This document shows, piece after piece, positions 554 through 42,122 of a stretch of DNA of 64,000 nt. The notes beneath the pieces are model-generated. The model saw only the letters and a list, made by a program, of their open reading frames with translations, did not search any database and was not told where the DNA came from. The first letter of the stretch is position 1; each line of letters begins with the position of its first letter. The translations under genes and the position numbers were made by a program. This DNA comes from a virus: positions 1-64,000 of the IMG/VR virus record IMGVR_UViG_3300042922_000313. One strand, 5' to 3'.

Positions 554-1027
554 CTACTTATTTGTGGACTTTAAATTATGTATTGCCCAATATCCAATTC
601 CGATAGCGTCAGCTTCATCTTCAGAAACTTCAGCTTTATATTTTTCTTTTACAAATATCTTAGTATTTTCTTTTTGTTCAACTCGTTTCCTGCCTTTAAT
701 TTTGCAACACGACTTCCATGCAGTCGGCTCTATTATTGTAAATCCAATATTGATGTTAAATAAATAAGCCATGATAATTCCTTGTAACTGACTCAATTGT
801 TGAAAAGTCCCATGATTATTTTGAAATTGAACTTGCTCGAATACTATGTAATCTGGATTGACATCTTTTATTAGTGCGATTATCTTATCATTCATTTCTT
901 TCATTCGCTCTATTGGATTAGTTTCATCTTTATTAGATTTGAGTAACCCATATGTATCCAGATTATTATCTGTAAATATAGAATAACCTGTTATTTTTGT
1001 TGATTGATCTAAATTTAATATTTTCGT
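554..1027 (-). CDS. RuvC-like Holliday junction resolvase, apparent ACG start
   Basis: 157-residue RNase H-fold nuclease expected to cut branched DNA before packaging or during recombination. The first catalytic Asp sits in LNLDQSTKITGYS near residue 6, the Glu in YIVFEQVQF, and the last acidic pair in EDEADAIGIGYWA near the C-terminus, which is the normal RuvC order. The catalytic N-terminus lies upstream of the first ATG (904), and a TAA stop directly precedes codon 1027. The only start that keeps the active site and fits the AAAGAGGTG ribosome site is ACG at 1027 (ATA two codons later is the alternative). Starting at ATG 904 would remove strand 1 and the catalytic Asp. It sits in the late operon after tail genes. 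Confidence 0.88.
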   Translation of the reverse strand, partial: TKILNLDQSTKITGYSIFTDNNLDTYGLLKSNKDETNPIERMKEMNDKIIALIKDVNPDYIVFEQVQFQNNHGTFQQLSQLQGIIMAYLFNINIGFTIIEPTAWKSCCKIKGRKRVEQKENTKIFVKEKYKAEVSEDEADAIGIGYWAIHNLKSTNK

Positions 1028-1040
1028 TTAATTCACCTCT

Positions 1041-1229
1041 TTAATTAGATTTCTTCCCATAAAAACCTGTAGTATTTACTATATAGTTTTGAGGTAGAAT
1101 ATCATCTACTTTTCTAACCATCGATTTACCACAAACCAAACATGGTTCATCTGGTTTATATTCACTCATTTTCTTTGTTATCGTTTCATCTACATTGCAA
1201 TAATTACAATGAAATTTATAATCTGGTAT
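1041..1229 (-). CDS. Small FmdB-like zinc-ribbon protein, probable ATA start
   Basis: About 62 residues beginning MPDYKFHCNYC and followed by CLVCGK, giving two CxxC knuckles typical of FmdB-type zinc ribbons, whose members characteristically begin MPxYxYxC. The start that gives this beginning is ATA at 1229, eight bases after AGGAAGGG. An in-frame GTG at 1238 exists but overlaps the ribosome site itself. Proteins of this kind are often found in phage genomes next to resolvases; a direct role is unknown. The gene lies only 13 bp upstream of the resolvase gene, so the two are probably co-translated. Confidence 0.7.
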   Translation of the reverse strand: MPDYKFHCNYCNVDETITKKMSEYKPDEPCLVCGKSMVRKVDDILPQNYIVNTTGFYGKKSN

Positions 1230-1265
1230 TGTAATCACCCTTCCTAATTTAATAAAATGATGGAT

Positions 1266-1478
1266 TTATGCCAACTGATGTTTATCCCATAACTCATATA
1301 ACTCAGACGTTTCTTTCCGATTAAATACAAAACATAAACACTTTCTTTTCTCGTGCCAAAAACAATCAATAAGCCTTGCACCATTTTTCATATATAATCC
1401 GGCTTGATTTGTTAACATAAGAAAAACCATATCGTCACCTTCATATGGTTCTCCAGTAATTCTAGACTGAATTTTGAT
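1266..1478 (-). CDS. Small unknown protein, probable ATC start
   Basis: 70 residues (start KIQSRITGEPYEGDDMVFL after the initiator). A full AAGGAGG lies eight bases before an ATC codon at 1478, with ATT one codon earlier as the alternative; no ATG, GTG or TTG precedes the conserved-looking beginning. The protein has a hydrophobic core and a Trp/Cys-rich middle (DCFWHEKRKCLCF), and reads as a genuine folded domain. It lies between a terminator hairpin and the zinc-ribbon gene in the late operon. No family recognised. Confidence 0.55.
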   Translation of the reverse strand: MKIQSRITGEPYEGDDMVFLMLTNQAGLYMKNGARLIDCFWHEKRKCLCFVFNRKETSELYELWDKHQLA

Positions 1479-1505
1479 AATGATTACCTCCTTAATCGTA
1501 AAAAA

Positions 1506-1549
1506 ATAGGTATACTACACCAATATAAAAAATAGTGTAGTATACCTAT
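1506..1549 (-). terminator. Strong terminator hairpin
   Basis: Perfect 15-bp stem (ATAGGTATACTACAC with its complement) with a 14-nt loop. On the minus strand it is followed by a run of seven T, so it should end transcripts coming from the zinc-finger gene at 1570-1905. Genes at 554-1478 lie beyond it and so depend on read-through or another promoter. Confidence 0.85.
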
Positions 1550-1569
1550 TAATAATTGTATGCTATCCA

Positions 1570-1905
1570 CTATTTTTTATTTTTATATGAAACTTTATTT
1601 TCCATATTAACCACAGGTTCTTCTGCTGGTTGTGTATTTTTTTGTTTTAATATATTTTCAATATCTTTTTTGATATCGTCATTGAAAGTATCAAGTTCAC
1701 TCAAATCACATTTCTCTAATAATGAGTTTGCTTCATCTATTGAAATGTGTTGGTAAAAACTCCTGTTGACAATATCAAAAATAGTCTTGCAATTTTCTTT
1801 ATCAAACATAATATGCCATGTTTCTAGTTCTCTGTCTTCATAACAACTAGGGCAGTAACTATGCTTTTTGCCGCATGTAAAACAAGTTCTATTTAGTTTT
1901 GCCAT
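1570..1905 (-). CDS. Small zinc-finger phage protein, tail chaperone position
   Basis: 111 residues starting at ATG after AAGGAGGGATT. The N-terminus holds CFTCGKKHSYCPSC, a compact four-Cys zinc knuckle, followed by an acidic helical region and a Lys-rich tail. It follows the tail-tube gene directly, where a tail assembly chaperone is commonly found, but no frameshift overlap with a longer product is visible. It is the last gene before the 1506-1549 terminator. Function unknown. Confidence 0.7.
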   Translation of the reverse strand: MAKLNRTCFTCGKKHSYCPSCYEDRELETWHIMFDKENCKTIFDIVNRSFYQHISIDEANSLLEKCDLSELDTFNDDIKKDIENILKQKNTQPAEEPVVNMENKVSYKNKK

Positions 1906-1927
1906 AATCCCTCCTTAGATTATAATA

Positions 1928-1952
1928 ATGGGTGAGTATTAAACCCACCCAT
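1928..1952 (-). terminator. Hairpin after tail-tube gene
   Basis: Seven-base-pair stem ATGGGTG/CACCCAT directly after the tail-tube stop codon. The downstream run is AT-rich but not a pure T tract, so it may be a partial terminator or a mRNA 3'-end stabiliser. Confidence 0.5.
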
Positions 1953-1960
1953 ATGTAATA

Positions 1961-2749
1961 TTAATCCATCTGTGGAATAACAATCTTAAATAGAGTCTTT
2001 TTCTTATCGCAATATGCCTGTTGTGCCTTCATACTAAAAGGATGTTTAGATTCTGTTGAGAAGGATATTTCGGTATTAGGATCAAGTTTTGCGTTAGGAA
2101 AAATGATATATGCATAGATTAAAGTTGTAGGATCACATACGTCGTTACCGAGAACTTCCATAATAAATTTACCTGCTTTAGGAAATTCTGTTGCAGAAGC
2201 AACTACCTCTACTGCATTTTCGGTTTCATACTCGTACATAACGAAAATCTGAGATCCAACTGTAACGCTTGTTGGTAAAGTAATGGTCTTGCTTGCAACA
2301 TCGTAAGCAAACTTATCAGTAGTAGCAGTAGCATTAACAACATATTTCTTACCCATTGTACTATCACCTTTTAATTCATAAATAGCTGTAATTGGTACAG
2401 TAGGTGTTTTCTTTAATACAACTGTAGTTCCGGTTACATCAATGTTTTCAAATATAGGAGATACAACCTTACTAGATGCACTAGCAACCTTCTTTGTTGC
2501 TCCCTGTTGTGTAGCAAATAAATTTAAGTCAAACATTGAGTTCTCTGCTGATAATGTTGCATTTTTTGCCAAGTGGTAAGTCTGGATAGTAGTTCCTAAG
2601 GCATCAACAGCCGTCTTCTCGTCAGCAGAACACTGTAAGCTAGGGTTCTCAATCTGATTGATTGAATACATAACTGAACCATCTGCTGTAGATGTCATAA
2701 TACCACGTAAAATTCTATCGATAATAAAATTCGATACGTCAAAAGCCAT
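1961..2749 (-). CDS. Putative major tail tube protein
   Basis: 262 residues starting MAFDVSNFIIDRILRG at an ATG eight bases after AAGGAGG (an upstream in-frame TTG at 2803 lacks a ribosome site). Beta-rich with low Cys, and repeated Thr/Val/Ala-rich strands after residue 100, fitting a structural protein made in large amounts. It lies after the connector and tail-terminator-like genes and before small chaperone-like genes, the usual siphophage place for the tail tube. The assignment rests on order, size and composition; I cannot point to a diagnostic motif. Confidence 0.65.
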   Translation of the reverse strand: MAFDVSNFIIDRILRGIMTSTADGSVMYSINQIENPSLQCSADEKTAVDALGTTIQTYHLAKNATLSAENSMFDLNLFATQQGATKKVASASSKVVSPIFENIDVTGTTVVLKKTPTVPITAIYELKGDSTMGKKYVVNATATTDKFAYDVASKTITLPTSVTVGSQIFVMYEYETENAVEVVASATEFPKAGKFIMEVLGNDVCDPTTLIYAYIIFPNAKLDPNTEISFSTESKHPFSMKAQQAYCDKKKTLFKIVIPQMD

Positions 2750-2795
2750 GTTTATTTCCTCCTTTAAATAATTTTTGGTATAAAAAAGAACCTGT

Positions 2796-3524
2796 TCAAT
2801 CAAGCTCTTTCATCCAATTTAATTCTGATTTAGTTATTTTGGTTTGGTCTACATTTCCACAATAAATGCCTAATTTTAATACTTCTACGTGTTTAATCTC
2901 TTGAATTCGTTTAACGCTGTCCATAAATTCACATAAACCAACCTCTTTTAATTCTCTTAGTTTATACTTAAAACCAGCACTATTCACCATTGACGAAATA
3001 AGCGGTTTTAATATAGATATAAATTCTTTATTTTTACTTAAAGCTCTTTTATCTCTATCTTCATCGATGAGTATTTTTTTTGTATACTGATTTGCAGCAC
3101 GTTCTATTTTCTTTCTAAATCCGTGCATTTTTCTTATATATTCTGCCATTAACGTATATATATGTCTATCAATGATAATATCGTTAGTTTCATCATACAT
3201 TACGGTTTCGTCATTATCTTTTCTACGATATACATCAAACATAGACAAATCGATATTCCCAAGTAATAAATAGGTGCATTCTTTAGTTAAAGTCTTTGAC
3301 AACATAATAAATAACTCAAAATCACTTATTTCTTCATAATCTATGTCCATATCCCAAAGTACAGATTTCATATCAGACGGAATAGCAACCAAAGTTTGAG
3401 CCATTGAAAAATAACGTTCTTCTCCAAATTCAACAATATCGCCAATAGTAGGTTGTTTTATAACTATTTTATTATTTATTATGTAGTCATTCCCGAAATA
3501 CAATTGCAAATCATCGATTGCCAT
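2796..3524 (-). CDS. Unknown virion-operon protein
   Basis: 242 residues, ATG after GGGGTGAAGGTGA, overlapping the upstream gene by 14 bp, which indicates translational coupling. The N-terminal 100 residues are acidic and mixed alpha/beta (IVEFGEERYFSM); residues 125-200 are basic and helical (RKKIERAANQYTKK). It sits between a probable tail-terminator gene and the tail-tube gene, so a tail assembly or connector role is likely, but nothing specific can be assigned. Confidence 0.65.
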   Translation of the reverse strand: MAIDDLQLYFGNDYIINNKIVIKQPTIGDIVEFGEERYFSMAQTLVAIPSDMKSVLWDMDIDYEEISDFELFIMLSKTLTKECTYLLLGNIDLSMFDVYRRKDNDETVMYDETNDIIIDRHIYTLMAEYIRKMHGFRKKIERAANQYTKKILIDEDRDKRALSKNKEFISILKPLISSMVNSAGFKYKLRELKEVGLCEFMDSVKRIQEIKHVEVLKLGIYCGNVDQTKITKSELNWMKELD

Positions 3525-15842: not shown

Positions 15843-16028
15843 TTAATTTATCTTTGTTCTTCTAACGTCGTTGTTTGTGACCTCGTCTTCAGTAATAATA
15901 CACTCAAATGTAAGAGTATTATCTGCTCCAACAATAGAATCTTTGAATATTACATTACAATTCTTATATTCATCGCCTAACTTGTTCTTGATGAATTCTT
16001 CGTCTATATACAGCTTTAGAATCTTAAT
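15843..16028 (-). CDS. Small acidic protein, apparent ATT start
   Basis: 61 residues reading KILKLYIDEEFIKNKLGDEY after the initiator and ending DVRRTKIN. GAAAGAAGG lies seven bases before ATT at 16028; an in-frame TAG lies four codons upstream of that codon and no ATG/GTG/TTG occurs before the conserved-looking beginning. A single-base change would give the textbook ATG AAG ATT. It has its own upstream AT-rich element (16076-16095) and downstream terminator, so it looks like a real single-gene unit. Function unknown. Confidence 0.6.
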   Translation of the reverse strand: MKILKLYIDEEFIKNKLGDEYKNCNVIFKDSIVGADNTLTFECIITEDEVTNNDVRRTKIN

Positions 16029-16578: not shown

Positions 16579-17820
16579 TTAGTTTAATTGTACATCTTTA
16601 ATTAATTCAATCTGGTTTGGTTTAGTGATAATAATAGTCTGACTTGCAATGGTAGCACATCCAAAAGCAGTACTGTAGTCGTTATATCCGCTTAAACAGC
16701 CACCAGATACAATATATCTACCTCTATTCTCAGAAATGACTCTATGATTATGCTCATGACCTTTTAGCATTAGATTATAAAATTCTTCATCCATTGAAAT
16801 GTCATTCTTTAAGTCTTGTTTATCATCTTTTGCACCTTTATCTCCATGTTTAGCTTTAACCAATAACCCGTTAATTTCTTTTACGATTTCCTTATCAGTG
16901 TGTGGTCTATCAACCACTCTAAGTCTAACCATTTGAGCCAATTCAGTGTACCTTTTAATTTGCTCTCTTACGATGGTATCTGCATTATCTCCATCCTGAT
17001 TAGCAGAGTAGTCACCATTAGTCCTATCGTGATTTCCGTAAATACTATCATATTCAACGTTACAGTATTTACATAAAGCAACTAAAAGTCTAAAGATAAT
17101 TTCAATAGCATGGTTTATCTGTTGAGATTGATTAAACTCACAAAACTGAGATTGATTCTTTCTCATTGATATATGCTCAATCATATCACCTGTATTGATG
17201 ACATAAACTTTTTTAATATCGTACATTTTTATGTATTTGTAGCAAGCATCAATTAACTGATCTACTCGTTCATTAGCAATTTTCCAATTAAAATAATTAC
17301 CTTTGCAGTTCTGTATAATGTAACCAATGTGCCAATCAGTGATGTGAACAATCATTTCATATTCACCATCTTCACATTCTTTTAATTTAACACTACAATA
17401 TTCAGGAACATTAACAACGAATCCATTTTCTTCTTGAATTGCCGCTAATTCTTCTGCGATTGAAATTGACTTTACAAACTCGTTTTTAAACTTATTAATC
17501 TGTTTGTTTTCATTTTGTAGTTGTTTCTTTAAAAGATAATGTTCACCGATTAACTCTTTAGCTTTTGCAATCTTTGTAGTAGAAGAGGAGTCTAATATTC
17601 CTTTCCACTTTAAATATTCAGCTACAAATGCACCACCAAATATTGTTTGTGAAGCCTTACGTATAGTATCATAATGAGCATTTACTTTATATAAGTCTTT
17701 AATTTCACTGAAATCATAATCGTTAAGACCTAATTGCCTTTTAGAAATTGTATCTAGGCACTCATCATATTGTTCAATAGTAAGTCCGTATTTGGCAATT
17801 TCTTCTTCAAATTTATATAT
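16579..17820 (-). CDS. SbcD/Mre11-like metallophosphoesterase with N-terminal extension, probable ATA start
   Basis: 413 residues. The phosphoesterase domain (residues 156-413) shows all metal motifs: ITDWHIG, NTGDMIEH, YGNHDRT, and LKGHEHNH, with a final GGCLSGYNDYS; it should cut DNA ends or hairpins. Reading frame continues 155 residues upstream of the first ATG (17355) without a stop, encoding a helical DNA-binding-like region (YGLTIEQYDECLDTISKRQ). The upstream part has no ATG/GTG/TTG; AGAGAGGA is followed nine bases later by ATA at 17820 (ATT at 17826 is closer). I take the long form as real. No partner ATPase (SbcC) is visible nearby. Confidence 0.8.
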   Translation of the reverse strand: MYKFEEEIAKYGLTIEQYDECLDTISKRQLGLNDYDFSEIKDLYKVNAHYDTIRKASQTIFGGAFVAEYLKWKGILDSSSTTKIAKAKELIGEHYLLKKQLQNENKQINKFKNEFVKSISIAEELAAIQEENGFVVNVPEYCSVKLKECEDGEYEMIVHITDWHIGYIIQNCKGNYFNWKIANERVDQLIDACYKYIKMYDIKKVYVINTGDMIEHISMRKNQSQFCEFNQSQQINHAIEIIFRLLVALCKYCNVEYDSIYGNHDRTNGDYSANQDGDNADTIVREQIKRYTELAQMVRLRVVDRPHTDKEIVKEINGLLVKAKHGDKGAKDDKQDLKNDISMDEEFYNLMLKGHEHNHRVISENRGRYIVSGGCLSGYNDYSTAFGCATIASQTIIITKPNQIELIKDVQLN

Positions 17821-17875
17821 ATTAATTCATCCTCTCTTCAATCTGCAAAATAGCAGAGTAGTTGTATAATTTTTA

Positions 17876-18249: not shown

Positions 18250-19689
18250 CTATAAATGCACAACCATATCTTTAGTTGAACAAATAACTCTAGTTGTTTT
18301 GTCCTTCTTTGATATAGATTCTTGCATATCTTTTTGTAAGTCTAGTTTCGCTTGATTATTTCCATGCACCAAAATGATTTTTTCTGTGTTTAATTCTGAT
18401 CCTATTTCAACCAGTTCTTCGTGACTCGCATGAGAACTAAAAGTTGAAAGCGTAATACAGTCTGCGCGATTAGGAATTGGTTTTTTATTAATAGTCAATG
18501 TCTTATTGTCTTTAAAATTTTTAATCCTATAAGACAAATAAGAACTATCACCACCAACATACCCAGAAAATATAATCATATTTCTATCGTCTTTTAAGTA
18601 CTCTTGTAGATATGTAACTACCCTGCCGTTGGTACAGAAACCAGAACTGCTTATTACGATTTTTGGTTTTTCATCTTTTACACATGCTGTTGAATCTGAT
18701 TTTTCACTAATAAATTTAACGTTTTCCCAATTATAAACCTTATTCCAAAGCTTTAAATCATCGCCTGTGAGTACTTCACTATATAAATCACAAATATCGC
18801 AACTTAATTTAGAGTCAACTACAACATCATAAGTAAATGATTTATCTTCGTGATATAATTCATATATTGTAGTTAATAATTCTTGTGTTCTTGAAAATGA
18901 AAATGCCGGAAGTAAAACTTTACCCTTGCGTTCCATTACTGTATTAATTGCAACACGTAAATGCTCTATATCAAAATTTCTTGTCTTTTTATTTATTCTT
19001 GATTTTTCACCGTATGTAGATTCCATAATTGTAATCTTGTTAAAGTCTTTGCATATTTCGGTATTCTCTACATAATGATTTTTGCTATTAGTAGAACCGA
19101 CATCGCTGGTATATAATATAGATGTTTTGCCATCGTTACCATTTAATATAAGTTGTAACTGTTTGGCTCCCACGCAATGAGAATTTCTATACCATTTAAA
19201 ACTAACAACATCGTCTAATTTATATATCTTGTCGTAGTTATCAAATTCATAAACATAATCCAATGCACGATATACATCATCCTCAATGTAAATAGGAGAG
19301 TAATCACGTTTGAATTTTTTTGTAAGCATTCTTGCTTCGGAATCCATAATAAAACTACTATTTAACAACATTGGTTCAAGGAAAGCAGCTACACTATGAC
19401 AGGTAATTACTTTACCTTTAAACCCTTCTTTAATTAAACGTGGAAGAAGCCCCTGATGATCCAAATGTTGGTGATTTATAAAACAATAATCAATTTCTTT
19501 TGGGTTAAATTTAAATTTATCTGTATTAACTTTATAAGATTCTAAAATTCCATTTGATTGAAACAATCCAATCTCTAATAAAATTTGCTTTCCGTTATAT
19601 TTAATTACGATACAGCTTCCAGTAACATCCTGAGAATTTTGTCCGACGAAGAATATACCGTCTCCAGTTAACTTTTTCTTGGCAATAAT
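18250..19689 (-). CDS. Beta-CASP metallo-beta-lactamase-fold nuclease, ATT start
   Basis: 479 residues of the RNase J/CPSF-73-type superfamily, which cuts RNA (or DNA). Motif II is NHQHLDH at residues 72-78; the YTSDVGS strand carries the later metal Asp; beta-CASP motifs are present as PAFSFSRTQEL, IVISSSGFCTNGR and FSSHASHEEL with IILVHGNNQAK. The first 41 residues (GIFFVGQNSQDVTGSCIVIKY ... LLEIGLFQS), needed for strand 1 of the fold, lie upstream of the first conventional start. AGAAGGG precedes ATT at 19689 by eight bases. A phage RNA-processing or mRNA-decay role is possible. Confidence 0.87.
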   Translation of the reverse strand: MIAKKKLTGDGIFFVGQNSQDVTGSCIVIKYNGKQILLEIGLFQSNGILESYKVNTDKFKFNPKEIDYCFINHQHLDHQGLLPRLIKEGFKGKVITCHSVAAFLEPMLLNSSFIMDSEARMLTKKFKRDYSPIYIEDDVYRALDYVYEFDNYDKIYKLDDVVSFKWYRNSHCVGAKQLQLILNGNDGKTSILYTSDVGSTNSKNHYVENTEICKDFNKITIMESTYGEKSRINKKTRNFDIEHLRVAINTVMERKGKVLLPAFSFSRTQELLTTIYELYHEDKSFTYDVVVDSKLSCDICDLYSEVLTGDDLKLWNKVYNWENVKFISEKSDSTACVKDEKPKIVISSSGFCTNGRVVTYLQEYLKDDRNMIIFSGYVGGDSSYLSYRIKNFKDNKTLTINKKPIPNRADCITLSTFSSHASHEELVEIGSELNTEKIILVHGNNQAKLDLQKDMQESISKKDKTTRVICSTKDMVVHL

Positions 19690-19719
19690 AAAAACCGCCC
19701 TTCTATAATGTATTTTGTA

Positions 19720-19881
19720 TTACTTAACTTTAATTAGACTCCTATAAACATTTAAAAATTCTACAGCATGTTGATCCTCTGTAAGATAGTAACATTTGTA
19801 AGTTCCATGTCCATGATGAACGTGTTCTCCAAACCCACCTTTTCTTAAAGCTGTTGCTTCGTGTTTTTCAATCTTTAAAAT
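19720..19881 (-). CDS. Small unknown protein, ATT start
   Basis: 53 residues, LKIEKHEATALRKGGFGEH after the initiator, then HHGHGTYKCYYLTEDQHAVEF. GAAGGAG lies six bases before ATT at 19881; no conventional start codon precedes the body. His-rich and compact, looking like a small beta-hairpin domain. It lies upstream of the nuclease gene and downstream of the tRNA pair. Function unknown. Confidence 0.55.
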   Translation of the reverse strand: MLKIEKHEATALRKGGFGEHVHHGHGTYKCYYLTEDQHAVEFLNVYRSLIKVK

Positions 19882-19912
19882 AAGTAGCTCCTTCTTTCAT
19901 TATAAATTTTGA

Positions 19913-19931: not shown

Positions 19932-19949
19932 GTTCACATAATAGTGAAA

Positions 19950-20031
19950 CGCTAACGGTAGGATTCGAACCCACAAGCCTTTCGACAAACGATTTTCAAG
20001 ACCGCATCCTTTACCACTCGGACACGTTAGC
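19950..20031 (-). tRNA. tRNA-Ser(UGA)
   Basis: Acceptor stem GCTAACG/CGTTAGC with discriminator G as expected for serine, anticodon loop CTTGAAA (anticodon TGA), long variable arm (class II), T arm GTGGG-TTCGAAT-CCTAC. CCA is not encoded. Confidence 0.92.
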
Positions 20032-20034
20032 AAA

Positions 20035-20123
20035 CGCAGAATAGTGGATTTGAACCACTACAGCCATATAGCTTACTCACAGTTTAGCAAACTGCTCCCT
20101 TACCAGATTAGGGTTAATTCTGC
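20035..20123 (-). tRNA. tRNA-Ser(GCU)
   Basis: Acceptor GCAGAAT/ATTCTGC, discriminator G, anticodon loop TTGCTAA (anticodon GCT), long variable arm, T arm TAGTG-GTTCAAATC-CACTA. It precedes the other serine tRNA by only 3 nt, so both come from one transcript. CCA is not encoded. Confidence 0.9.
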
Positions 20124-20125
20124 AT

Positions 20126-20702: not shown

Positions 20703-23675
20703 TTATAAATTTTTTATTCTATTTTTTCGCATGTTTTCTCTAGTTTTCTCTTTATTCACCTCTTTAGCACATATCTTACAATACTTCGGTTTATTATTTC
20801 TTTTTGTATTATATTCAAATCTTTCACCACATTTTTCACAAATCTTAGTTCCTTCAAGATTGCGTTTAATATTTTCATATATCATATCTCCAAATAACCT
20901 CCATAACGTATCTTTATTAATATCTCCTTGTAATGATTTCACTAATACATCGGCGATGTACTCCGCAGGCTCATCAATTATCTCTACAAATCTGTCTTTT
21001 TGTTTAATTGAATCAAACTCTAATTGCAATTTCACTTTCTTTTTTTCATCTATTTCAAGACTATTTAAGTCAATATAAGATAACTTCCTTATGTTTGAAT
21101 CGTTAATTGATTGGTATAACTCTATAATTTGTTTCGTTTTTTCAGTATTCTTATCTACATCTGGATTACTCATCAAAGTTTTATATGTATATTTGCCTAG
21201 TAAATCTTTAAATACTATACGGTTACTTTTAACAACATTGTAAATCCGATCTATGTTGCATTTCCCAAGAGACTCTACTTGGTTTACAGTCTTTCCTTTA
21301 GCATAGATAAAAAAATGTGGAACCTTTTTACCACTATAATTCTTATACCGTTTTAATATATGTTTAGGTATTGTCGGTTTATATAATGTCTTAGCAAAAT
21401 CAATAGTAAAATTAACATCGACACATCTTAATGCAACTATTTCTATTGCTTCTTCGACTTCTTCTTTTTTACTGTCTGGGCTAAGAGTCATAAATATTTT
21501 AGTGATCTCATTGCTAGGTGTGCCTATGTTACCGTGATGATATGCCAACACAATTCCTTCATAAAGAGTTGTATTATTTAACTCTGTTGGATTGGCTTTT
21601 GGCATTTCATAATAATTTGGTATCATCCCGTATTTCTTTTGAAACCTCTTTGAACAATCAATAATGGTGCGGTTCCTATGAACTAGAAGTTTATCTCCAT
21701 CATTATCATACATGAGAAGTTTACTCATGGTATCTTTAACTCCAATATATACACCTTTTGATTTTACCCATTGTTTACTGTCTTCGTTATATTTGTTTTT
21801 TCTTATACAATGAGCATGATCAAGATGAGGCGATCTCAAACAATCAACTTCTTCATCATCTTCAAATAGTGAGCAGCATACTTCATTTTCTTTTACAAAT
21901 CCTAAATTATCTAAATTTCTCTCATCAGTAAACCACCACTGTAAACATGCTAAAACATCTGGAACTGCAAAAGTATACGCGCCTTCAATGCTGAATTTCC
22001 CACTTCTAAACTTGTTAATCATGCTATTTTTCGTATTTTTCAATAGAGATTTTACATAGTAATCTTTAAGCATCTCAGGATAGAGTAGTAGTGACTTTTG
22101 TAAATAGGTTAATTTATCATTTTTATCTTCATTTGCACCAAGTACATTTAACATACATTCAACATTATTACCAATTCCATTAAGATTGTCGATATCATAT
22201 GATGATAACTCTTTAATTTCTCCATCTGTCATTTCTGTTGTCAAAGTTTGTAATATCTGGTAATTGGTTTTTGCGTTTAATTTAACCTTTTTTTCAACAT
22301 TGCATCTACAAGCGTCACATTGGTATTGTTTGAAATTATCCTTATATACCTCCCAACCCGTCTTAATTACAACATTATTATCATCTAAAATATTTTGAAA
22401 ATATTTATGCATTTTAAACTGTGACTCGGTGAATATGTAATCTACATCATCGATATAGTGCATTTTCCCATATATATCAATGATTTTTTTGATTTTGATT
22501 CCATGTTTTTCACAATAATCCTTAAAAGCTTTTCTTGAAACATAGGCAATTAACCCCTTAATAAACGGAAGTCTTATCATCGCTGATGGCATTTTTTTTA
22601 GTGAGATTCCAAAACCATCTGTAAAAGGAATTTTGATAGGCATATTACAAATACATGGTTTGTGATATTTGTTTCTTATTTTATCTATTTCATCTAAAGT
22701 TTCTTTTTTTAGCCACCTAACATCTTTTTCATGATCAATTTCATGTTTTCCACGTCTTACACCTTTGTTTTTACTGAGCTTTATGATTCTTAACTCTTTA
22801 GAAATACCATCTAATTTTTCTTGTAATTCAATTAATTTATCTTTGTCTTCAGGTGTTTCAGTGTAAATATATCTTACAGTCTGATTAAGAATTTCATACT
22901 CTATATCTGGAACGACTATAGCTTTATCAATATCAAAACCCTTCCAAATTTCGCTGTTTGTCTGACACAAACTTGTATATGCAAGAAACTTATTTGTATT
23001 CATACCGCCAAGATTATTAATAATTTCTCTTGAAAGCCCACAAAACAATCTGTTAAAGTTTTCATTCAGTTTTTCCTCTGATACAAACGTACTCTTTTTA
23101 CACCGTGTTTGACCTGCCCCCGCAGTAAAGAATACAAAATGTTTATCATTATAATCAAAACCTTTATGTATAATACTATCAAATATTTCAGTATAATATG
23201 TAACTACACTAATAATATCATCACTATGTTGTAGATCTTTACAGCCAAAACATCTTGTTAAATCGCTTTCAAAAATAGCAATGTTACGAAATTGGTCTTC
23301 GTTTTTAAATTCTCTATTATCGTATATTTGACGTTTTATTCTCGTATTATTTGATAGCATGTTTCGGAATATGGATTCTGCGTAATCTTCAATTTTCTTA
23401 CACTTTTGTAATTTATAATGACACATTTCTAAATGTTGATATAACCATTTATAACGAGTTTCATCTTCGTCAATATACATTAAAATACTTTCAATGATAC
23501 TGATTGCTTTGTTATAGTGGTATTTTTTCTTTTTCATTATACCAATTTTCTTATATATCTTATATTCCTTTTCTGTTAAAAGTGGTTCAAACCCAATGTT
23601 TAATATCTCTATTATTGACTTACCATCTCCGTACTCAGGCTTTCTTAAATTGACACCTTCAATTATGTTGTCCAT
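20703..23675 (-). CDS. Single-chain DPBB RNA polymerase (YonO/QDE-1-like), phage-encoded
   Basis: 990 residues. The catalytic signature is YDNDGDKLL at residues 656-664 (DxDGD, three Asp that hold Mg2+ in the second double-psi beta-barrel). About 40 residues earlier, CLRSPHLDHAH (612-622) occupies the place of the RNPxL..G/H element seen in eukaryotic RdRP-like and YonO proteins. The C-terminus carries a four-Cys zinc finger (C946, C949, C966, C969: CEKCGERF ... CKICAK) and a basic tail. YonO of phage SPbeta is a DNA-dependent polymerase for late genes; the analogous job here would be the minus-strand virion operon directly downstream. Start ATG after GAAAGGAAGATTATTAA. Sole candidate of its kind in the window and intact. 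Confidence 0.87.
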   Translation of the reverse strand: MDNIIEGVNLRKPEYGDGKSIIEILNIGFEPLLTEKEYKIYKKIGIMKKKKYHYNKAISIIESILMYIDEDETRYKWLYQHLEMCHYKLQKCKKIEDYAESIFRNMLSNNTRIKRQIYDNREFKNEDQFRNIAIFESDLTRCFGCKDLQHSDDIISVVTYYTEIFDSIIHKGFDYNDKHFVFFTAGAGQTRCKKSTFVSEEKLNENFNRLFCGLSREIINNLGGMNTNKFLAYTSLCQTNSEIWKGFDIDKAIVVPDIEYEILNQTVRYIYTETPEDKDKLIELQEKLDGISKELRIIKLSKNKGVRRGKHEIDHEKDVRWLKKETLDEIDKIRNKYHKPCICNMPIKIPFTDGFGISLKKMPSAMIRLPFIKGLIAYVSRKAFKDYCEKHGIKIKKIIDIYGKMHYIDDVDYIFTESQFKMHKYFQNILDDNNVVIKTGWEVYKDNFKQYQCDACRCNVEKKVKLNAKTNYQILQTLTTEMTDGEIKELSSYDIDNLNGIGNNVECMLNVLGANEDKNDKLTYLQKSLLLYPEMLKDYYVKSLLKNTKNSMINKFRSGKFSIEGAYTFAVPDVLACLQWWFTDERNLDNLGFVKENEVCCSLFEDDEEVDCLRSPHLDHAHCIRKNKYNEDSKQWVKSKGVYIGVKDTMSKLLMYDNDGDKLLVHRNRTIIDCSKRFQKKYGMIPNYYEMPKANPTELNNTTLYEGIVLAYHHGNIGTPSNEITKIFMTLSPDSKKEEVEEAIEIVALRCVDVNFTIDFAKTLYKPTIPKHILKRYKNYSGKKVPHFFIYAKGKTVNQVESLGKCNIDRIYNVVKSNRIVFKDLLGKYTYKTLMSNPDVDKNTEKTKQIIELYQSINDSNIRKLSYIDLNSLEIDEKKKVKLQLEFDSIKQKDRFVEIIDEPAEYIADVLVKSLQGDINKDTLWRLFGDMIYENIKRNLEGTKICEKCGERFEYNTKRNNKPKYCKICAKEVNKEKTRENMRKNRIKNL

Positions 23676-26563: not shown

Positions 26564-27808
26564 TTACCATCCAACAGCATTAAAGATGTCTTCATCTGTC
26601 AATTGACCATTCTTGGTTTGTTTTGGTTTCTGTTTATTTACATAAGTGTGCTTAATCAATTCTTTACAAGGATCAGTGTCTAGGAATGGGCATTGTACTT
26701 CTATTAACTTACCACCACGTTTAAACTTGGCATGACCATTACCACGTAATTTCTCCAATCCAACTTCATCAATGATTATGCTGCTATTAGTACTATTAAT
26801 AGTTTTTAAGCCTAAAATTGATGTTATATTAGCTTTTATATCACCATCAAGTATCTTAGACGACGGACGTTGGGTGCTAAGCAAAATGTGAATGCCACAG
26901 GCTCTGGACTTCCTCGCCAATAATTTCAATAGATTCATGTCATCAGATTTTGCGTCTAAATCAGCAAATTCGTCTACAATTAATATTTGATAATCCATCT
27001 TCTTTAGTTTAAACTTTTTATTGTATTCTTTGATGTCTTTAACATCTTTCTCGTAGAACAAATCATATCGTCTGTCCACCTCTATACTCAGAGACATTAA
27101 TAAATCATGTGTCTCTTTTGTATTTCTACAAAAGCTTGCTACCTTACTAGAATTACGAAACAAGTTAAATTCAGCTCCATTCTTCAAGTCTACTAGGTGT
27201 AATGTTACATCTGACATAAGTATTAAATTAGTAATTATCGTTCTGATAATGGTACTTTTCCCACTACCAGATTCTCCATAAATACCCATATGTGGTTCTC
27301 CAGATGATAAATCACATGAGATTAGTTCTTCTCTAATGTCATAACCAATAATAATAGGAACTTCACCTTTAACCTTTGTTGGCACATATTCATAGAAGGT
27401 CTTCTTATTACTATTATATACTTCAATCATTATCTCCTTATAGGTGTACTTCATATCAACTTCAGCACCAATATAGTTCTCTATAGCTTCTTTCTTGTCA
27501 TCAAAGTCCTTAATGCTTAATCCTGCTGGTAATGTAAATCTGTAAATGGTGCTAATATCTGTTTTTGTCTTACCTTTTAGAATCGGATATGCTAATCCTT
27601 TACCTAATCCTAAGTTATGAAACAACCTATCAAATTTGCTATAAGTCCATGCATAGTAGGTTATTCCTGCTACTCCAAGCACTTTGAATAACTTACACAT
27701 AGGAGATAGTGATGGATCAATCAATTCAAATCCAAAGCCACACATGATTGAATATGCACTGTTTTGGACGATTAACATACGTAAGTCTTTCACATCATTG
27801 TTTTTCAA
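26564..27808 (-). CDS. FtsK/SpoIIIE-like DNA translocase
   Basis: 414 residues, TTG start after GGAGTGATATA. A hydrophobic N-terminal region (MLIVQNSAYSIMCGFGFELI and LGVAGITYYAW, about residues 12-55) may anchor it in the membrane. Walker A GESGSGKST is at 178-186 and Walker B QILIVDEFADL at 274-284, followed by LLSTQRPS, the FtsK/HerA sensor pattern. It lacks the C-terminal gamma domain of chromosomal FtsK. In plasmids such ATPases (TcpA-type) pump DNA or act as coupling proteins. Co-transcribed with par and Replic_Relax genes. Confidence 0.85.
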   Translation of the reverse strand: MKNNDVKDLRMLIVQNSAYSIMCGFGFELIDPSLSPMCKLFKVLGVAGITYYAWTYSKFDRLFHNLGLGKGLAYPILKGKTKTDISTIYRFTLPAGLSIKDFDDKKEAIENYIGAEVDMKYTYKEIMIEVYNSNKKTFYEYVPTKVKGEVPIIIGYDIREELISCDLSSGEPHMGIYGESGSGKSTIIRTIITNLILMSDVTLHLVDLKNGAEFNLFRNSSKVASFCRNTKETHDLLMSLSIEVDRRYDLFYEKDVKDIKEYNKKFKLKKMDYQILIVDEFADLDAKSDDMNLLKLLARKSRACGIHILLSTQRPSSKILDGDIKANITSILGLKTINSTNSSIIIDEVGLEKLRGNGHAKFKRGGKLIEVQCPFLDTDPCKELIKHTYVNKQKPKQTKNGQLTDEDIFNAVGW

Positions 27809-28094: not shown

Positions 28095-29018
28095 CTACCT
28101 CCTGTTGTCACATGCTCTTAATTGTGGTTCTATTTGTGATCCAAATCTTTGATAACCAACTTTATAATAACCGATTGCATTTGCAAATTGACTATTCACC
28201 ATGAGTCTAGCTGAAGGGAAGTATAGTTTAAACAAGTCATAGAATACGATAGCTGAACCACCACATAAGTATATTTGTGTATTAGCTGAAGGATAATTTA
28301 ATTGGAATTCCTTTAATATTGGCTCTAGGTATTGTTTGTAAGTAGATAGTAAGAAATCAGTAGATACTTTTTCTCCGTGAAGATATAAGCCATTAGATAG
28401 AATTGTTTCTGCATATTGAATATCTAGAGTGAGATTGTACTTTTCATTTACCATATTGATTATCTTAGAATATAACTTTTGTACTCCTTGTGTCCATGTA
28501 TCATACTTCTGTAATACTGGATTTCCATAGATGATTTCTAAGTAGGCTATGTCGATTGTCATTCCACCAAAATCAAATATGATTACATGACTATTTAACT
28601 CTTGCTGGCTTAATGCCGCACCAATACATTGAGGCATTACGAATACATCTTGGATACTGAAGTTGAATGGTTTGCCTCTGTATATAACTTCTGATCCATT
28701 GTATCCTAATATCATTTTCTTAAATTTATCTTTCTGTGATTTGTATTGTGCAATTGGTAATCCAACAACTAGATAGTAATCATCACTACCTGTCATTGCC
28801 AGATTGGTTAGTGTTGTAACTTTGTTTATCTCGCTGTCGCTCTTATCAAACTGTACATTTCTTTCTCCGGCTCCAACTGAGTAGTCTACACCATCAATAG
28901 TAATTAATGCTGAAGCTCCTAATGATACTGTTTCTCTAGTGTAAGCTGAACGGAATATTCTCATCTCATTGTCTTTTGTGTATAAGTACCCGTGATCTAA
29001 TCCTTTAATTCTGCCCAT
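28095..29018 (-). CDS. parM: ParM/actin-like plasmid segregation ATPase
   Basis: 307 residues, ATG after AAGGGGGCATTATTTAC. Actin-fold motifs are visible: phosphate 1-like GLDHGYLYTK (6-15), phosphate 2 IIFDFGGMTIDIAYL (146-160), and the adenosine loop YLCGGSAIVFY (250-260). It polymerises to push sister copies of a low-copy replicon apart. First gene of the operon parM-parR-ftsK-Replic_Relax; the upstream region carries direct repeats that may be the centromere and autoregulatory site. Confidence 0.88.
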   Translation of the reverse strand: MGRIKGLDHGYLYTKDNEMRIFRSAYTRETVSLGASALITIDGVDYSVGAGERNVQFDKSDSEINKVTTLTNLAMTGSDDYYLVVGLPIAQYKSQKDKFKKMILGYNGSEVIYRGKPFNFSIQDVFVMPQCIGAALSQQELNSHVIIFDFGGMTIDIAYLEIIYGNPVLQKYDTWTQGVQKLYSKIINMVNEKYNLTLDIQYAETILSNGLYLHGEKVSTDFLLSTYKQYLEPILKEFQLNYPSANTQIYLCGGSAIVFYDLFKLYFPSARLMVNSQFANAIGYYKVGYQRFGSQIEPQLRACDNRR

Positions 29019-38795: not shown

Positions 38796-38826
38796 TTTAA
38801 AACTAAATAAGGAGGATTTTACACTA

Positions 38827-38952
38827 ATGAACATACTAACAGAAGAACAGAAAGAACAGAACAAGAAAGAGGCTAGATCACATTTAATTGATATTATCTT
38901 AGAGAAAATAATGGAGGATAAACAAAATGCAAGGTACAGTACACAAGTTTGA
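38827..38952 (+). CDS. 41-residue helical protein under leader B
   Basis: ATG after AAGGAGGATTTTACACTA; MNILTEEQKEQNKKEARSH then LIDIILEKIMED. All-helical and charged. It overlaps the next gene by 26 bp, so translation is coupled. Unknown. Confidence 0.55.
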   Translation: MNILTEEQKEQNKKEARSHLIDIILEKIMEDKQNARYSTQV

Positions 38953-39202: not shown

Positions 39203-39214
39203 GGAGGTTTAAAT

Positions 39215-39331
39215 ATGATAGAATATATTACACATAGAGACTATATTGAACTAAAAATAAACGGTAAAACAGAAGGAAACTATGATACAAAGGAAGAAGC
39301 ACACAGGGAAGCAATGAATCTAGGTTATTAA
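39215..39331 (+). CDS. 38-residue protein
   Basis: ATG after AAGGAGGTTTAAAT. IEYITHRDYIELKINGK then EGNYDTKEEAHREAMNLGY; a two-strand and helix fold of the sort found in prophage small proteins. Unknown. Confidence 0.55.
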   Translation: MIEYITHRDYIELKINGKTEGNYDTKEEAHREAMNLGY

Positions 39332-39350
39332 CAAAAATTACATTTATTAT

Positions 39351-39399
39351 AATATATATAAAACTGAGTATTGACATACAATATTAGTAGTATTATAAT
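39351..39399 (+). promoter_or_regulatory. Strong sigma-A promoter with AT-rich element
   Basis: AATATATATAAAAC (39351-39364), TTGACA (39371-39376), 17-bp spacer, TATAAT (39394-39399). Drives the operon beginning at 39473. Confidence 0.85.
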
Positions 39400-39472
39400 G
39401 ATAGCAACAGAACATATTGAACAAAATATGGAAATGTGGTAGAATTAAATAATGATTGATTGGAGGGCTGAG

Positions 39473-39679
39473 ATGGAATACAAAGAATTTATATCACAAG
39501 GTAATGATTGTTTAATTTACAGAACAGTAAGCATTTTACCAATAGGAAATAAGTTTGCGGTCATAACTTTAACTCGATTGTCAGGAGCATGGATTAACAA
39601 CAATAATCTTGGCACTGATACAGTAAATTTTGATACAGAGAAAGAAGCAACAGAGTATTATGATAGCATCGAATATTGA
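39473..39679 (+). CDS. Small unknown protein
   Basis: 68 residues, MEYKEFISQGNDCLIYRT at ATG 39473 after TGGAGGGCTGAG (in-frame ATG at 39452 lies upstream of that site). Beta-rich, with TEKEATEYYDSIEY helix at the end. First gene behind the 39371 promoter. Unknown. Confidence 0.6.
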   Translation: MEYKEFISQGNDCLIYRTVSILPIGNKFAVITLTRLSGAWINNNNLGTDTVNFDTEKEATEYYDSIEY

Positions 39680-39707
39680 TTTTATAAGAAGAAGGTGAGG
39701 ATAAGTT

Positions 39708-39953
39708 ATGTTTGGTCAATTGAGTAATTTTAAATGTCCGTGTTGTAACCATACTGAGGTTATTAGATTAGGTAGAACACAGTTTGTAAATATTAAAGAT
39801 AAAGGTGAGCATTTAGCATTAACAAACTGTCCTAAGTGCAATAAATTGATTGCTTTTGAAATGGTTGATAGAAAATCAGAACCATCATTTAGCTTTGATG
39901 TAAGAAGTATTAACGAAGATGAAATTGAAAACGCAGGAGTTATATGTTACTGA
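39708..39953 (+). CDS. Zinc-ribbon protein
   Basis: 81 residues, ATG after AAGGTGAGGATAAGTT. FKCPCCNHTEVIRLGR ... LTNCPKCNKLIAFEM gives two CPxC knuckles, a classic four-Cys zinc ribbon, then an acidic tail. Transcription or RNA binding is possible. Confidence 0.7.
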   Translation: MFGQLSNFKCPCCNHTEVIRLGRTQFVNIKDKGEHLALTNCPKCNKLIAFEMVDRKSEPSFSFDVRSINEDEIENAGVICY

Positions 39954-39995
39954 TAAAATGATTATTTTATGTATAGAAAGGATAGGCATTTAAGT

Positions 39996-40151
39996 ATGGA
40001 TATTGAGAAATATAAAAACGATTTAGAATATCACAGAAACAAATTGAATGAAGCATTTCAGAATTCAGATTTTGAACAAATAGCAGCTCAAGCTAACCAA
40101 ATTAAAGAGTTGGCTTATATGATAAGTTACTGTAATAAAAAAGATAAGTAA
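39996..40151 (+). CDS. Small coiled-coil protein
   Basis: 51 residues, MDIEKYKNDLEYHRNKLNE, ATG 39996 (an in-frame ATG at 39969 is possible). Entirely helical with heptad pattern. Unknown. Confidence 0.55.
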   Translation: MDIEKYKNDLEYHRNKLNEAFQNSDFEQIAAQANQIKELAYMISYCNKKDK

Positions 40152-40164
40152 CCATCGATATGAA

Positions 40165-40239
40165 ATGGATTGTAACATTGAAAAGTTAAAAACAATTGAA
40201 ATGATATGTGATATTTTAAAAGGAAGAATATTAAGCTGA
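40165..40239 (+). CDS. Possible 24-residue peptide
   Basis: MDCNIEKLKTIEMICDILKG at ATG 40165 with only a poor ribosome site. Amphipathic helix. Listed as a weak candidate; it could be chance. Confidence 0.25.
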   Translation: MDCNIEKLKTIEMICDILKGRILS

Positions 40240-40376
40240 ATAAAGTTTTCCACACCATCGCCAGAGTAATAACATAACATTGTTATAGGTTCTAGGATGC
40301 AAAATCAGACGATGGATTGAAGTAAGTAATCAATTAACAATTAATAGCCTAGAAAGGCAAATAAGGAGGTGTGAGA
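40240..40376 (+). other. Leader with palindromes upstream of 40377
   Basis: 137 nt with CCATCG (40255)/CGATGG (40310), the palindrome ATAACA-T-TGTTAT (40274-40286) and a small hairpin GCC-TAGAAA-GGC near 40348. The palindrome could be a protein-binding site; no promoter is clear. Confidence 0.4.
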
Positions 40377-40532
40377 GTGAACGAAGAGTTATTAAAGATA
40401 TATCGGTTAGTAGTTGAAAGAATTAATATGATAACTAAAACTGATACATATACAGAAATTGATGAATATAGAAAACAGGGTGCTTTATCCGAATTAGAGG
40501 AGTTAAAAGAATTACTAGATACAATGATATAA
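40377..40532 (+). CDS. Small helical protein, GTG start
   Basis: 51 residues; GTG seven bases after AAGGAGGT. NEELLKIYRLVVERINMITKTD then ELEELKELLDTMI. All helical. Unknown. Confidence 0.55.
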   Translation: MNEELLKIYRLVVERINMITKTDTYTEIDEYRKQGALSELEELKELLDTMI

Positions 40533-40582
40533 GTATTCAAAGCAAAGAGTAGATTGATGCTAAAATGAAAGGAGTTTTTATT

Positions 40583-40807
40583 ATGACAAAGGAAATAAAA
40601 GTAGCTCAATATGATCAAATAGGGTATGTAGAGAATGATTACAAATATATCTTAAAGTGTAACAAATATGATAACGATTTGGTTATTGGTCAAAGGACAG
40701 TTAGCGGAACAGAAATACTGCTTTCCATAAGACACGATAGGGTATCAGATGAAACAATTGATACTATTTGTGCAAGATTTGGATTTAAAATAAGTAAAGT
40801 ATATTAA
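40583..40807 (+). CDS. Small unknown beta-rich protein
   Basis: 74 residues starting MTKEIKVAQYDQIGYVENDYK at ATG 40583 after AAAGGAGTTTTTATT (an in-frame ATG at 40565 precedes that site). Predominantly beta with a helix near DETIDTICARFGF. Unknown. Confidence 0.6.
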   Translation: MTKEIKVAQYDQIGYVENDYKYILKCNKYDNDLVIGQRTVSGTEILLSIRHDRVSDETIDTICARFGFKISKVY

Positions 40808-40876
40808 ACTATAACATCAATCAATTCATTTATGTTATATAAACAAAATATAAAACAAATAGAAAGGAATTAAACT

Positions 40877-41128
40877 ATGAAAACAATAACATATATAGAC
40901 GACAGAACACCAAGGGAAAGGATATTAGAGTTCATTAAACAATACATAGAAGAACACTGTTATCCGCCAACTACAAGAGAAATAGCTGCCGGAGTTGGAT
41001 TAAAATCTGCATCGACAGTATGTGAACATATTAAAACACTAATGCAATTTGGATTAATTGAAACAGATGCAGAGATAGGATCAAACAGAGCATTAAGAGT
41101 AGTAGGAATGAAAATGGTAAGAGCGTAA
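40877..41128 (+). CDS. LexA-type winged-helix DNA-binding protein without protease domain
   Basis: 83 residues, ATG after AGAAAGGAATTAAACT. RERILEFIKQYIEEHCYPPTTREIAAGVGL (about 13-42) and SASTVCEHIKTLMQFGLIE match the LexA N-terminal DNA-binding domain including the conserved Tyr-Pro-Pro-(T/S) turn. The Ser/Lys self-cleavage domain is absent, so it cannot be released by RecA cleavage; it could compete with host LexA at SOS sites or bind its own operator. A candidate SOS box lies at 52206. Confidence 0.82.
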   Translation: MKTITYIDDRTPRERILEFIKQYIEEHCYPPTTREIAAGVGLKSASTVCEHIKTLMQFGLIETDAEIGSNRALRVVGMKMVRA

Positions 41129-41166
41129 AAAATAATCAAATAATATTTGATTTAGAAAGGAGAAAA

Positions 41167-41424
41167 ATGACTGTAATAGAAAATTATAAAGGTGTGAATA
41201 TTGCTTCAGCAATTGTTTGTTATAATATAAGGTATTTTGTTATGAATAAACTTTTTACACATTTTGATACAATCGAAGAAGCTAGAGAAGACATAGATAA
41301 TACAATACATATGGGTATTGCTTATGATTGGATAGCGAAGAATAAAGAGTATATAAAACATATTGATTTTAGTAGAGATGATTTAATTCAAATAGGAATA
41401 AACATTAGTAGCATGAACAAATAA
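41167..41424 (+). CDS. Small unknown protein
   Basis: 85 residues, ATG after AAAGGAGAAAA. An N-terminal beta sheet (VIENYKGVNIASAIVCYNIRYFV) then a helix (TIEEAREDIDN) and helical C-terminus. Such YfjI-like small folds are common in prophages; no function. Confidence 0.6.
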   Translation: MTVIENYKGVNIASAIVCYNIRYFVMNKLFTHFDTIEEAREDIDNTIHMGIAYDWIAKNKEYIKHIDFSRDDLIQIGINISSMNK

Positions 41425-41482
41425 CTTAAAATACTTAATTGATGCATTGAAAATAAAACAATAAAGAAAGTAGGTATAATAA

Positions 41483-41644
41483 ATGTTAAAGATTAAAAAT
41501 AAGAAAGTAGATATAAAGAATGATAATGGTGATGTTGTTGTAACAGATGGCAAAACAGAATATTACAGGGCTAATAAGTCAACACAGACTATAAGTATTG
41601 CAAATAGTATTTATTGGTCAGTCAAATATGAAGAGGTGATATGA
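41483..41644 (+). CDS. Small unknown protein
   Basis: 53 residues; KIKNKKVDIKNDNGDVVVTDGK then NSIYWSVKYEEVI. ATG with ribosome site AAAGAAAGTAGG. All-beta. Its stop overlaps the region of the next start. Confidence 0.55.
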   Translation: MLKIKNKKVDIKNDNGDVVVTDGKTEYYRANKSTQTISIANSIYWSVKYEEVI

Positions 41645-41645
41645 A

Positions 41646-41792
41646 TTGACTGAAGAAATTTGTATGGAATGTAAGCACTGTGAGATATTAGAATATGGAT
41701 ATAACGGAAGATTAGGAGCAACGATTTTAATATGTAACATACTCGAAGAGGACAATGAAAATAAAGAAGAGTGTTTTGAACAAAGTACATAA
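41646..41792 (+). CDS. Small Cys-rich protein, TTG start
   Basis: 48 residues; TTG at 41646 after GAGGTGATATGAA. TEEICMECKHCEILEYG ... ILICNILEED ... EECFEQ: at least five Cys suggest a metal site. The ATG at 41641 is out of frame and reads only two codons. Unknown. Confidence 0.5.
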   Translation: MTEEICMECKHCEILEYGYNGRLGATILICNILEEDNENKEECFEQST

Positions 41793-41828
41793 AATCGGAA
41801 TTTGAAGCAATAGAAAGGATGAGAAATT

Positions 41829-41954
41829 ATGAAACTAATTAAAGGTATTTTAGTATGGTTTGGAATGATATTTATGGCAGTAACAGCTCCAATATGGTGG
41901 TTGTTAAAATATGATATGATAGTTGAAATCGATAGAAAAGGAAGACACTTTTAA
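41829..41954 (+). CDS. Single-pass membrane peptide
   Basis: 41 residues; ATG after AAAGGATGAGAAATT. LIKGILVWFGMIFMAVTAPIWWLL is a clear membrane helix, followed by a basic end (DRKGRHF). Unknown. Confidence 0.55.
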   Translation: MKLIKGILVWFGMIFMAVTAPIWWLLKYDMIVEIDRKGRHF

Positions 41955-41993
41955 CATCAAACAGTCATTCGATTACATGAAAGAAGGTATAAA

Positions 41994-42122
41994 ATAATAG
42001 GTATTTTATTAATTCCACTATTCTTTTTAGTCTTATGGATTGTAGACATATGTCAGGCTAAACAGAGGGAAAAGGATTATGAAGCATATCAAGAAGAAAA
42101 ACGAAGAAAGGGATTGATTTAG
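41994..42122 (+). CDS. Small membrane protein, probable ATA start
   Basis: 42 residues; IGILLIPLFFLVLWIVDIC is a membrane helix, followed by a charged helix (QAKQREKDYEAYQEEKRRKGLI). GAAAGAAGG lies six bases before ATA at 41994; no ATG/GTG/TTG precedes the helix in frame. The upstream ATG at 41977 is in another frame and yields five codons. Its stop abuts the next ATG, as expected for a real gene in this compact operon. Confidence 0.5.
   Translation: MIGILLIPLFFLVLWIVDICQAKQREKDYEAYQEEKRRKGLI

What the first reader, a model, noticed from the sequence alone, without database searches (positions are those of the whole stretch)
554..42122. Recurrent near-cognate start codons (ATT, ATA, ATC, ACG) behind good ribosome sites
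At least eight genes have a clear Shine-Dalgarno followed at 6-9 nt by a near-cognate codon and no usable ATG, GTG or TTG before their conserved or motif-bearing beginning: ACG 1027 (resolvase), ATA 1229 (zinc ribbon), ATC 1478, ATT 16028, ATA 17820 (phosphoesterase), ATT 19689 (beta-CASP nuclease), ATT 19881, and ATA 41994. Three encode enzymes whose active-site strands lie in the affected N-terminus. AUU initiation is known for infC, so such codons can be used at low efficiency; seeing this many in 64 kb is unusual. It could mean deliberate low-level translation, sensitivity to IF3 levels, or a phage factor that relaxes start selection. It also means standard gene callers truncate or miss these genes.
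Basis: partly seen in the sequence, partly recalled or inferred. Interest (0 to 1): 0.82.

Follow-up and report, generated by a model that had tools for sequence, protein, structure and literature searches.

The report
Weak start codons in SPbeta-like phages
Several genes of this phage, and of its relatives including the classic Bacillus phage SPbeta, begin with codons that ribosomes normally use poorly (ATA, ATT, ATC, ACG, CTG), apparently to keep certain enzymes at low levels, so standard gene-finding software cuts these proteins short or misses them.

Summary
The window is part of an SPbeta-like phage. Four of the eight claimed near-cognate starts hold up: ATA 17820 (YonJ-like exonuclease), ATT 19686 (beta-CASP nuclease, one codon downstream of the claim), ATT 19881, and ACG 1027 (RuvC; no relative confirms the codon itself). 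Two are plausible (16028, 1229). Two are unproven (1478, 41994).

The effect extends beyond this window. In eight related contigs (1,074 genes), genes lacking any ATG/GTG/TTG with a ribosome site carry near-cognate codons at Shine-Dalgarno spacing 54 times against 11.5 expected (p=1e-19). About 4% of genes are affected, against 0.7% in control phages. At the same aligned start, orthologs have ATG in some relatives and ATA/ATT/ATC/CTG in others, and the near-cognate codons persist although synonymous sites are nearly randomised. SPbeta's GenBank record uses ATT or CTG for 9 of 96 CDS checked; phi3T keeps eight.

No IF3-like gene or shared initiator tRNA was found. Best reading: ordinary but inefficient initiation, helped by strong extended Shine-Dalgarno sequences, holding nucleases, replication and transcription enzymes at low dose. 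The mechanism is known from infC, pcnB and S. aureus ccpN; its recurrence across a phage lineage appears undescribed. Translation was not measured.

The parts
16579..17820 (-). YonJ-like exonuclease (phrog_284, calcineurin-type), ATA start at 17820-17818, 413 aa
   Evidence: G004 ortholog (80%) has ATA directly after in-frame TAA; homolog lengths 413-419 aa; phrog_284 E=3e-61
17830..17837 (-). SD AGAGAGGA of the exonuclease gene
   Evidence: GAGAGGA also present in G001, G002, G004
18250..19686 (-). beta-CASP nuclease, ATT start most likely at 19686-19684 (reader: 19689), 478 aa
   Evidence: ATG aligned with 19686 in about 20 homologs, ATT in G001/G002, ATC in a second clade; Pfam Beta-Casp
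19698..19704 (-). SD AGAAGGG of the beta-CASP gene
   Evidence: identical in G001
19720..19881 (-). small conserved ORF upstream of beta-CASP, ATT start at 19881, 53 aa
   Evidence: no standard start in the ORF; ATT in G001, ATA in G002 and MT835469 at the same gene
19888..19894 (-). SD GAAGGAG of the small ORF
554..1027 (-). RuvC-like resolvase, apparent ACG start at 1027-1025, 157 aa
   Evidence: in-frame TAA directly before ACG; Pfam RuvC from residue 3; SD GAGGTGA
1033..1039 (-). SD GAGGTGA of the resolvase
15843..16028 (-). 61-aa ORF with no ATG/GTG/TTG, apparent ATT start at 16028 (plausible, no homolog)
1041..1229 (-). zinc-ribbon ORF, ATA 1229 possible; in-frame GTG 1238 abuts the SD (ambiguous)
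1266..1478 (-). small ORF, ATC 1478 possible but ATG 1430 has SD AGGTGA (ambiguous)
   Evidence: phrog_31036
41994..42122 (+). 42-aa ORF with ATA 41994 (unproven, no homolog)

Best explanation
In this SPbeta-like phage lineage a few percent of genes start at near-cognate codons (mostly ATA and ATT, also ATC, ACG, CTG). The host ribosome is placed by a strong SD, often extended toward the start codon (GGTGA type), and initiates with ordinary fMet-tRNA at low yield. The weak codon acts as a fixed dose limiter for proteins needed in few copies: nucleases, RuvC, the YonO RNA polymerase, a replication initiator, small regulators. Shown: in several genes these codons are the only usable or the aligned starts, ATG and near-cognate codons alternate at the same aligned position in orthologs, and the near-cognate state is retained through near-saturated synonymous divergence. 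Inferred: low yield, fMet identity, and that low dose is what selection keeps.
For: Codon-specific enrichment at SD spacing, 54 vs 11.5, with ATA 25 vs 3.3, ATT 18 vs 5.3, ACG 5 vs 0.7, ATC 5 vs 1.5. YonO start ATG / ATA / ATT, YonJ ATG / TTG / ATA / CTG, beta-CASP ATG / ATT / ATC at aligned positions. At least two origins on the beta-CASP tree, each kept within its clade. Four-fold sites only 41-47% identical in four of five ortholog pairs, yet all five pairs share the same near-cognate start. SPbeta annotation and phi3T conservation. Start-proximal GGTGA-type SD in 62% vs 18% of ATG genes. In S. aureus, AUA/AUU starts with extended SDs give about 10% of AUG yield (PMC13009471). Products are mostly catalytic, low-copy proteins.
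Against: No expression data at all. SPbeta youA and yomF lie in the late/structural region, so not all targets are obviously low-copy enzymes. The exact extended-SD motif set of PMC13009471 is not enriched here (17% vs 26%). SDs of near-cognate genes are not stronger overall than those of ATG genes at the same threshold. The functional bias was not tested statistically.
Confidence: 0.62

Rival explanations
1. IF3-responsive regulon: the near-cognate starts act as a group, so that a fall in free IF3 or a phage factor during infection raises all of them together and times their expression.
For: AUN and ACG/CUG are the classes that IF3 is known to discriminate against (infC, and sigR GTC in PMC5472188); many replication and nuclease genes carry them in the same phages.
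Against: No IF3 homolog in the contig or in eleven related records, no clade-wide initiator tRNA; orthologs often use ATG or TTG instead, which argues against a strict regulon.
Confidence: 0.13
2. Nearly neutral drift: strong SDs make the start codon almost irrelevant, so ATG decays to single-substitution neighbours without cost and without function.
For: All observed codons are single-step neighbours of ATG; several genes in several relatives; hosts with strong SDs.
Against: AAG and AGG are not enriched in the clade although they are equally close. States are stable within clades at near-saturated synonymous sites and do not return to ATG. Measured yields elsewhere fall about tenfold, which is a real cost (PMC13009471).
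Confidence: 0.13
3. Host-lineage property: the host translation system uses near-cognate codons freely, and its chromosome would show the same.
For: The host of the window is unknown; a Clostridia MAG shows a few candidate cases, one convincing (OGG1-like ACG).
Against: MAG rate 7/337 with several false calls; other Bacillota phages show 6/909; SPbeta shows the trait in B. subtilis, where chromosomal near-cognate starts are rare (own knowledge).
Confidence: 0.06
4. Misreading: sequence errors, or true starts at other ATG/GTG/TTG codons missed by the reader.
For: True for some listed cases: ATG 1430 has its own SD, and G001/G002 beta-CASP have an in-frame GTG two to three codons upstream.
Against: Same codons in independent metagenome contigs and in the deposited genomes SPbeta and phi3T. 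The window has GTT where G001/G002 have GTG, but keeps ATT-ATT. ATG sits exactly at the aligned codon in relatives. The enrichment is specific to near-cognate codons.
Confidence: 0.06

Closest known systems
SPbeta (NC_001884.1) annotated non-standard starts: yomF, yoqK, yotH (CTG); youA, yoqL, yorM, yorY, yotK, bnrdI (ATT)
   Same: Same phage kind, same classes of start codon, strong SD, conserved in phi3T, ATG in a distant ortholog of yomF
   Different: SPbeta uses ATT and CTG; the window's clade uses mostly ATA and ATT plus ATC and ACG, and in other genes
infC and pcnB AUU starts (E. coli)
   Same: Near-cognate AUN start that limits or regulates expression (own knowledge; cited in PMC13009471)
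   Different: Isolated host genes; infC is autoregulated by its own product IF3
S. aureus ccpN, citZ, infC (AUA) and cvfC1 (AUU) starts, PMC13009471
   Same: AUA/AUU with extended SD in a Bacillota host, about 10-30% of AUG yield, conserved start codon
   Different: Four chromosomal genes measured in vivo; here about 4% of a phage's genes, by sequence only; their extended-SD motif set is not enriched here
Streptomyces sigR GTC start, PMC5472188
   Same: Non-standard start repressed through IF3
   Different: One regulator gene in a host genome; GTC codon

Membership tests
Near-cognate (AUN/ACG/CUG) translation initiation | Codon one base from ATG at SD spacing, no usable standard start | tested here: met
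   17820, 19686, 19881, 1027 in the window; 25 of 31 clean cases in the clade
Near-cognate (AUN/ACG/CUG) translation initiation | Homologous proteins start at the same position | tested here: met
   ATG at the aligned codon for beta-CASP and YonO; ATA shared for YonJ. Not met for ACG 1027, where G002 starts a few codons earlier
Near-cognate (AUN/ACG/CUG) translation initiation | Initiation with fMet at reduced yield | not testable with these tools
   needs proteomics, profiling or reporters
infC-type IF3-controlled initiation | Yield rises when IF3 is limiting | not testable with these tools
   no phage IF3 found; response itself untested
S. aureus-type extended-SD non-canonical starts | Start-proximal extended SD pairing | tested here: inconclusive
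   GGTGA-type extension 62% vs 18% (p=3e-10), but the paper's own motif set 17% vs 26%, not enriched
SPbeta-like phages | YonO-type RNA polymerase | tested here: met
   37-38% identity to SPbeta yonO over about 80% of the protein
SPbeta-like phages | Shared replication and structural genes | tested here: inconclusive
   yorL, yorJ, yomI homologs in G002 and other relatives; the window's 67 kb record is a fragment and matched only yonO among those tested

The most novel reading that the evidence does not exclude
A phage lineage keeps a distributed set of weak-start genes that act as one translational regulon, switched on together when infection changes initiation fidelity (IF3 to ribosome ratio, or an unknown phage factor).
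Probability: 0.13. Interest if true: 0.85.

Novelty: new variant of a known kind. Interest (0 to 1): 0.62.

Why it matters
It would be a rare case where near-cognate initiation is a recurrent, lineage-wide gene-control device and not a curiosity of one or two host genes. It can be tested at once in SPbeta or phi3T in B. subtilis. It also implies that gene callers limited to ATG/GTG/TTG truncate or miss about 4% of genes in such phages, including polymerases and nucleases.

Tried and rejected
Phage IF3: no match in the window's contig or eleven related records. Phage initiator tRNA: tRNA-Met only in some genomes, absent from most near-cognate ones. Translational coupling or re-initiation: near-cognate genes are not closer to an upstream stop than ATG genes (22% vs 28% within 15 nt). 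Assembly error: same codons in independent contigs and in SPbeta/phi3T. Host-wide property: a Clostridia MAG that carries an ATG-type relative shows few and partly false cases; the true host of the window is unknown, so this is weak. Host naming by plasmid search failed. Literature: no paper describing near-cognate starts as a phage trait was found in nine searches; the original SPbeta genome paper did not turn up in them.

Full report
What is there. The window is 64 kb of a 67 kb IMG/VR phage contig, 30% GC. Its 990-aa gene at 20703-23675 is a YonO-type RNA polymerase (37-38% to SPbeta yonO). SPbeta homologs of yorL, yorJ and yomI occur in its relatives, so this is an SPbeta-like phage. Its nearest relatives are G001 (16.6 kb), G002 (140 kb) and G004 (54 kb). 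G005-G008 form a further set with the same trait.

The eight claimed sites. All codons and SDs exist as described, with one offset. ATA 17820 (YonJ-like exonuclease): G004, 80% identical, also starts ATA with an in-frame TAA directly before it, and the 413 aa of the window protein match the 413-419 aa of the Sundance, PMBT69 and PJN02 homologs. Beta-CASP: ATG in about 20 homologs aligns with ATT 19686, one codon after the claimed 19689; G001 and G002 keep ATT-ATT, and the in-frame GTG upstream in those two is GTT in the window. ATT 19881: the G001 homolog has the same ATT-TTA-AAG-ATT, and the same small gene in G002 and MT835469 starts ATA. ACG 1027: a stop codon sits directly upstream, and RuvC homology begins at residue 3; G002 starts at an ATG a few codons further upstream, so the ACG itself is not confirmed by a relative. 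16028 and 1229 are plausible. 1478 has a competing ATG 1430 with an SD. 41994 is a 42-codon ORF without support.

Chance test. In each genome, predicted genes without any ATG/GTG/TTG bearing an SD were collected, and the codon at SD spacing was read whatever it was. In the eight-contig set (1,074 genes) it was ATA 25 times (3.3 expected from codon usage), ATT 18 (5.3), ACG 5 (0.7), ATC 5 (1.5), with other codons mostly near or below expectation; near-cognates total 54 against 11.5, Poisson p 1e-19. Genes affected: 47/1,074 against 6/909 in eight control phages (Fisher 7e-8; MT835469, itself a distant relative with seven, left out). A strict subset with no standard codon nearby keeps 25 of 31 in the clade against 4 of 15 in controls. 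The scan is imperfect: a MAG control gave 7/337, several being misplaced starts. The set of eight contigs was chosen partly because their beta-CASP or exonuclease gene had a near-cognate start, which biases the rate upward by about one or two genes per genome.

Same position, different codon. YonO: ATG-AGT-GAA in L116, ATA-AGT-GAA in L098, ATT-AGC-AAA in G004. YonJ: ATG, TTG, ATA or CTG. Replication initiator: ATC in G002, TTG, GTG or ATG elsewhere. In the beta-CASP tree the near-cognate state needs two changes, on well-supported clades, one ATT and one ATC; the distant MT835469 homolog also has ATC. Four-fold sites between such ortholog pairs are 41-47% identical in four of five pairs, yet all five pairs keep the same near-cognate start, including ACG between G005 and G006. 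This argues that the weak codon is kept by selection.

SPbeta itself. Of 96 CDS checked in NC_001884, six start with ATT and three with CTG. phi3T keeps eight of them; only yorM, whose N-terminal part does not align, could not be compared. The 33%-identical yomF ortholog of Sundance has ATG at the CTG position. bnrdI is doubtful because a GTG lies two codons upstream. Near-cognate starts are therefore already in the public SPbeta annotation, which limits novelty. No paper treating them as a pattern was found in the open library (nine searches).

Mechanism. No IF3 homolog was found, no clade-wide initiator tRNA, and no excess coupling to upstream genes. Near-cognate genes have SDs extended toward the start (GGTGA type) in 62% against 18% of ATG genes. 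This resembles S. aureus non-canonical starts, where AUA/AUU give about 10% of AUG yield, up to 30% for ccpN (PMC13009471); that paper's exact motif set is not enriched here. Products include an exonuclease, beta-CASP nuclease, RuvC, a DUF1064 resolvase, ERCC4 and GIY-YIG nucleases, a replication initiator, RNA polymerase and a head protease, mostly catalytic proteins needed in few copies. I infer a dose limiter built from ordinary fMet initiation. Neutral drift and an IF3-linked regulon remain possible; expression data are needed.

Noticed in passing
20703-23675 (-): YonO-type single-subunit RNA polymerase (37-38% to SPbeta yonO), ATG start in the window but ATT in G004 and ATA in L098.
   Followed up: partly
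locus L030 303-1160 (-), Staphylococcus phage K KF766114: The annotated start of this AAA_5 ATPase (AHB79961.1) lies downstream of the P-loop; an in-frame ATT with an SD lies 91 codons upstream, so this well-known phage may also have a near-cognate start.
   Followed up: partly
MT835469.1 (loci L078-L086): Human-gut phage with seven near-cognate candidates, among them a guanylate-kinase-like gene whose P-loop lies before the next standard start.
   Followed up: partly
26564-27808 (-), 28095-29018 (-), 47106-48467 (+), 42517-43482 (+): FtsK/HerA-like ATPase and VirD4/TraG-like and integrase-like proteins (by eye), and an actin-like ParM-type protein (Pfam ALP_N): the element may live as a phage-plasmid.
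   Followed up: no
19949-20124 (-): Two adjacent tRNA-Ser genes (UGA, GCU) directly upstream of the near-cognate gene cluster; relatives carry other, mostly different tRNAs.
   Followed up: no
MAG genome G013, contig C2 near 56312: An OGG1-like chromosomal ORF with SD GGGGGTG and ACG as the apparent start: possible cellular example.
   Followed up: no
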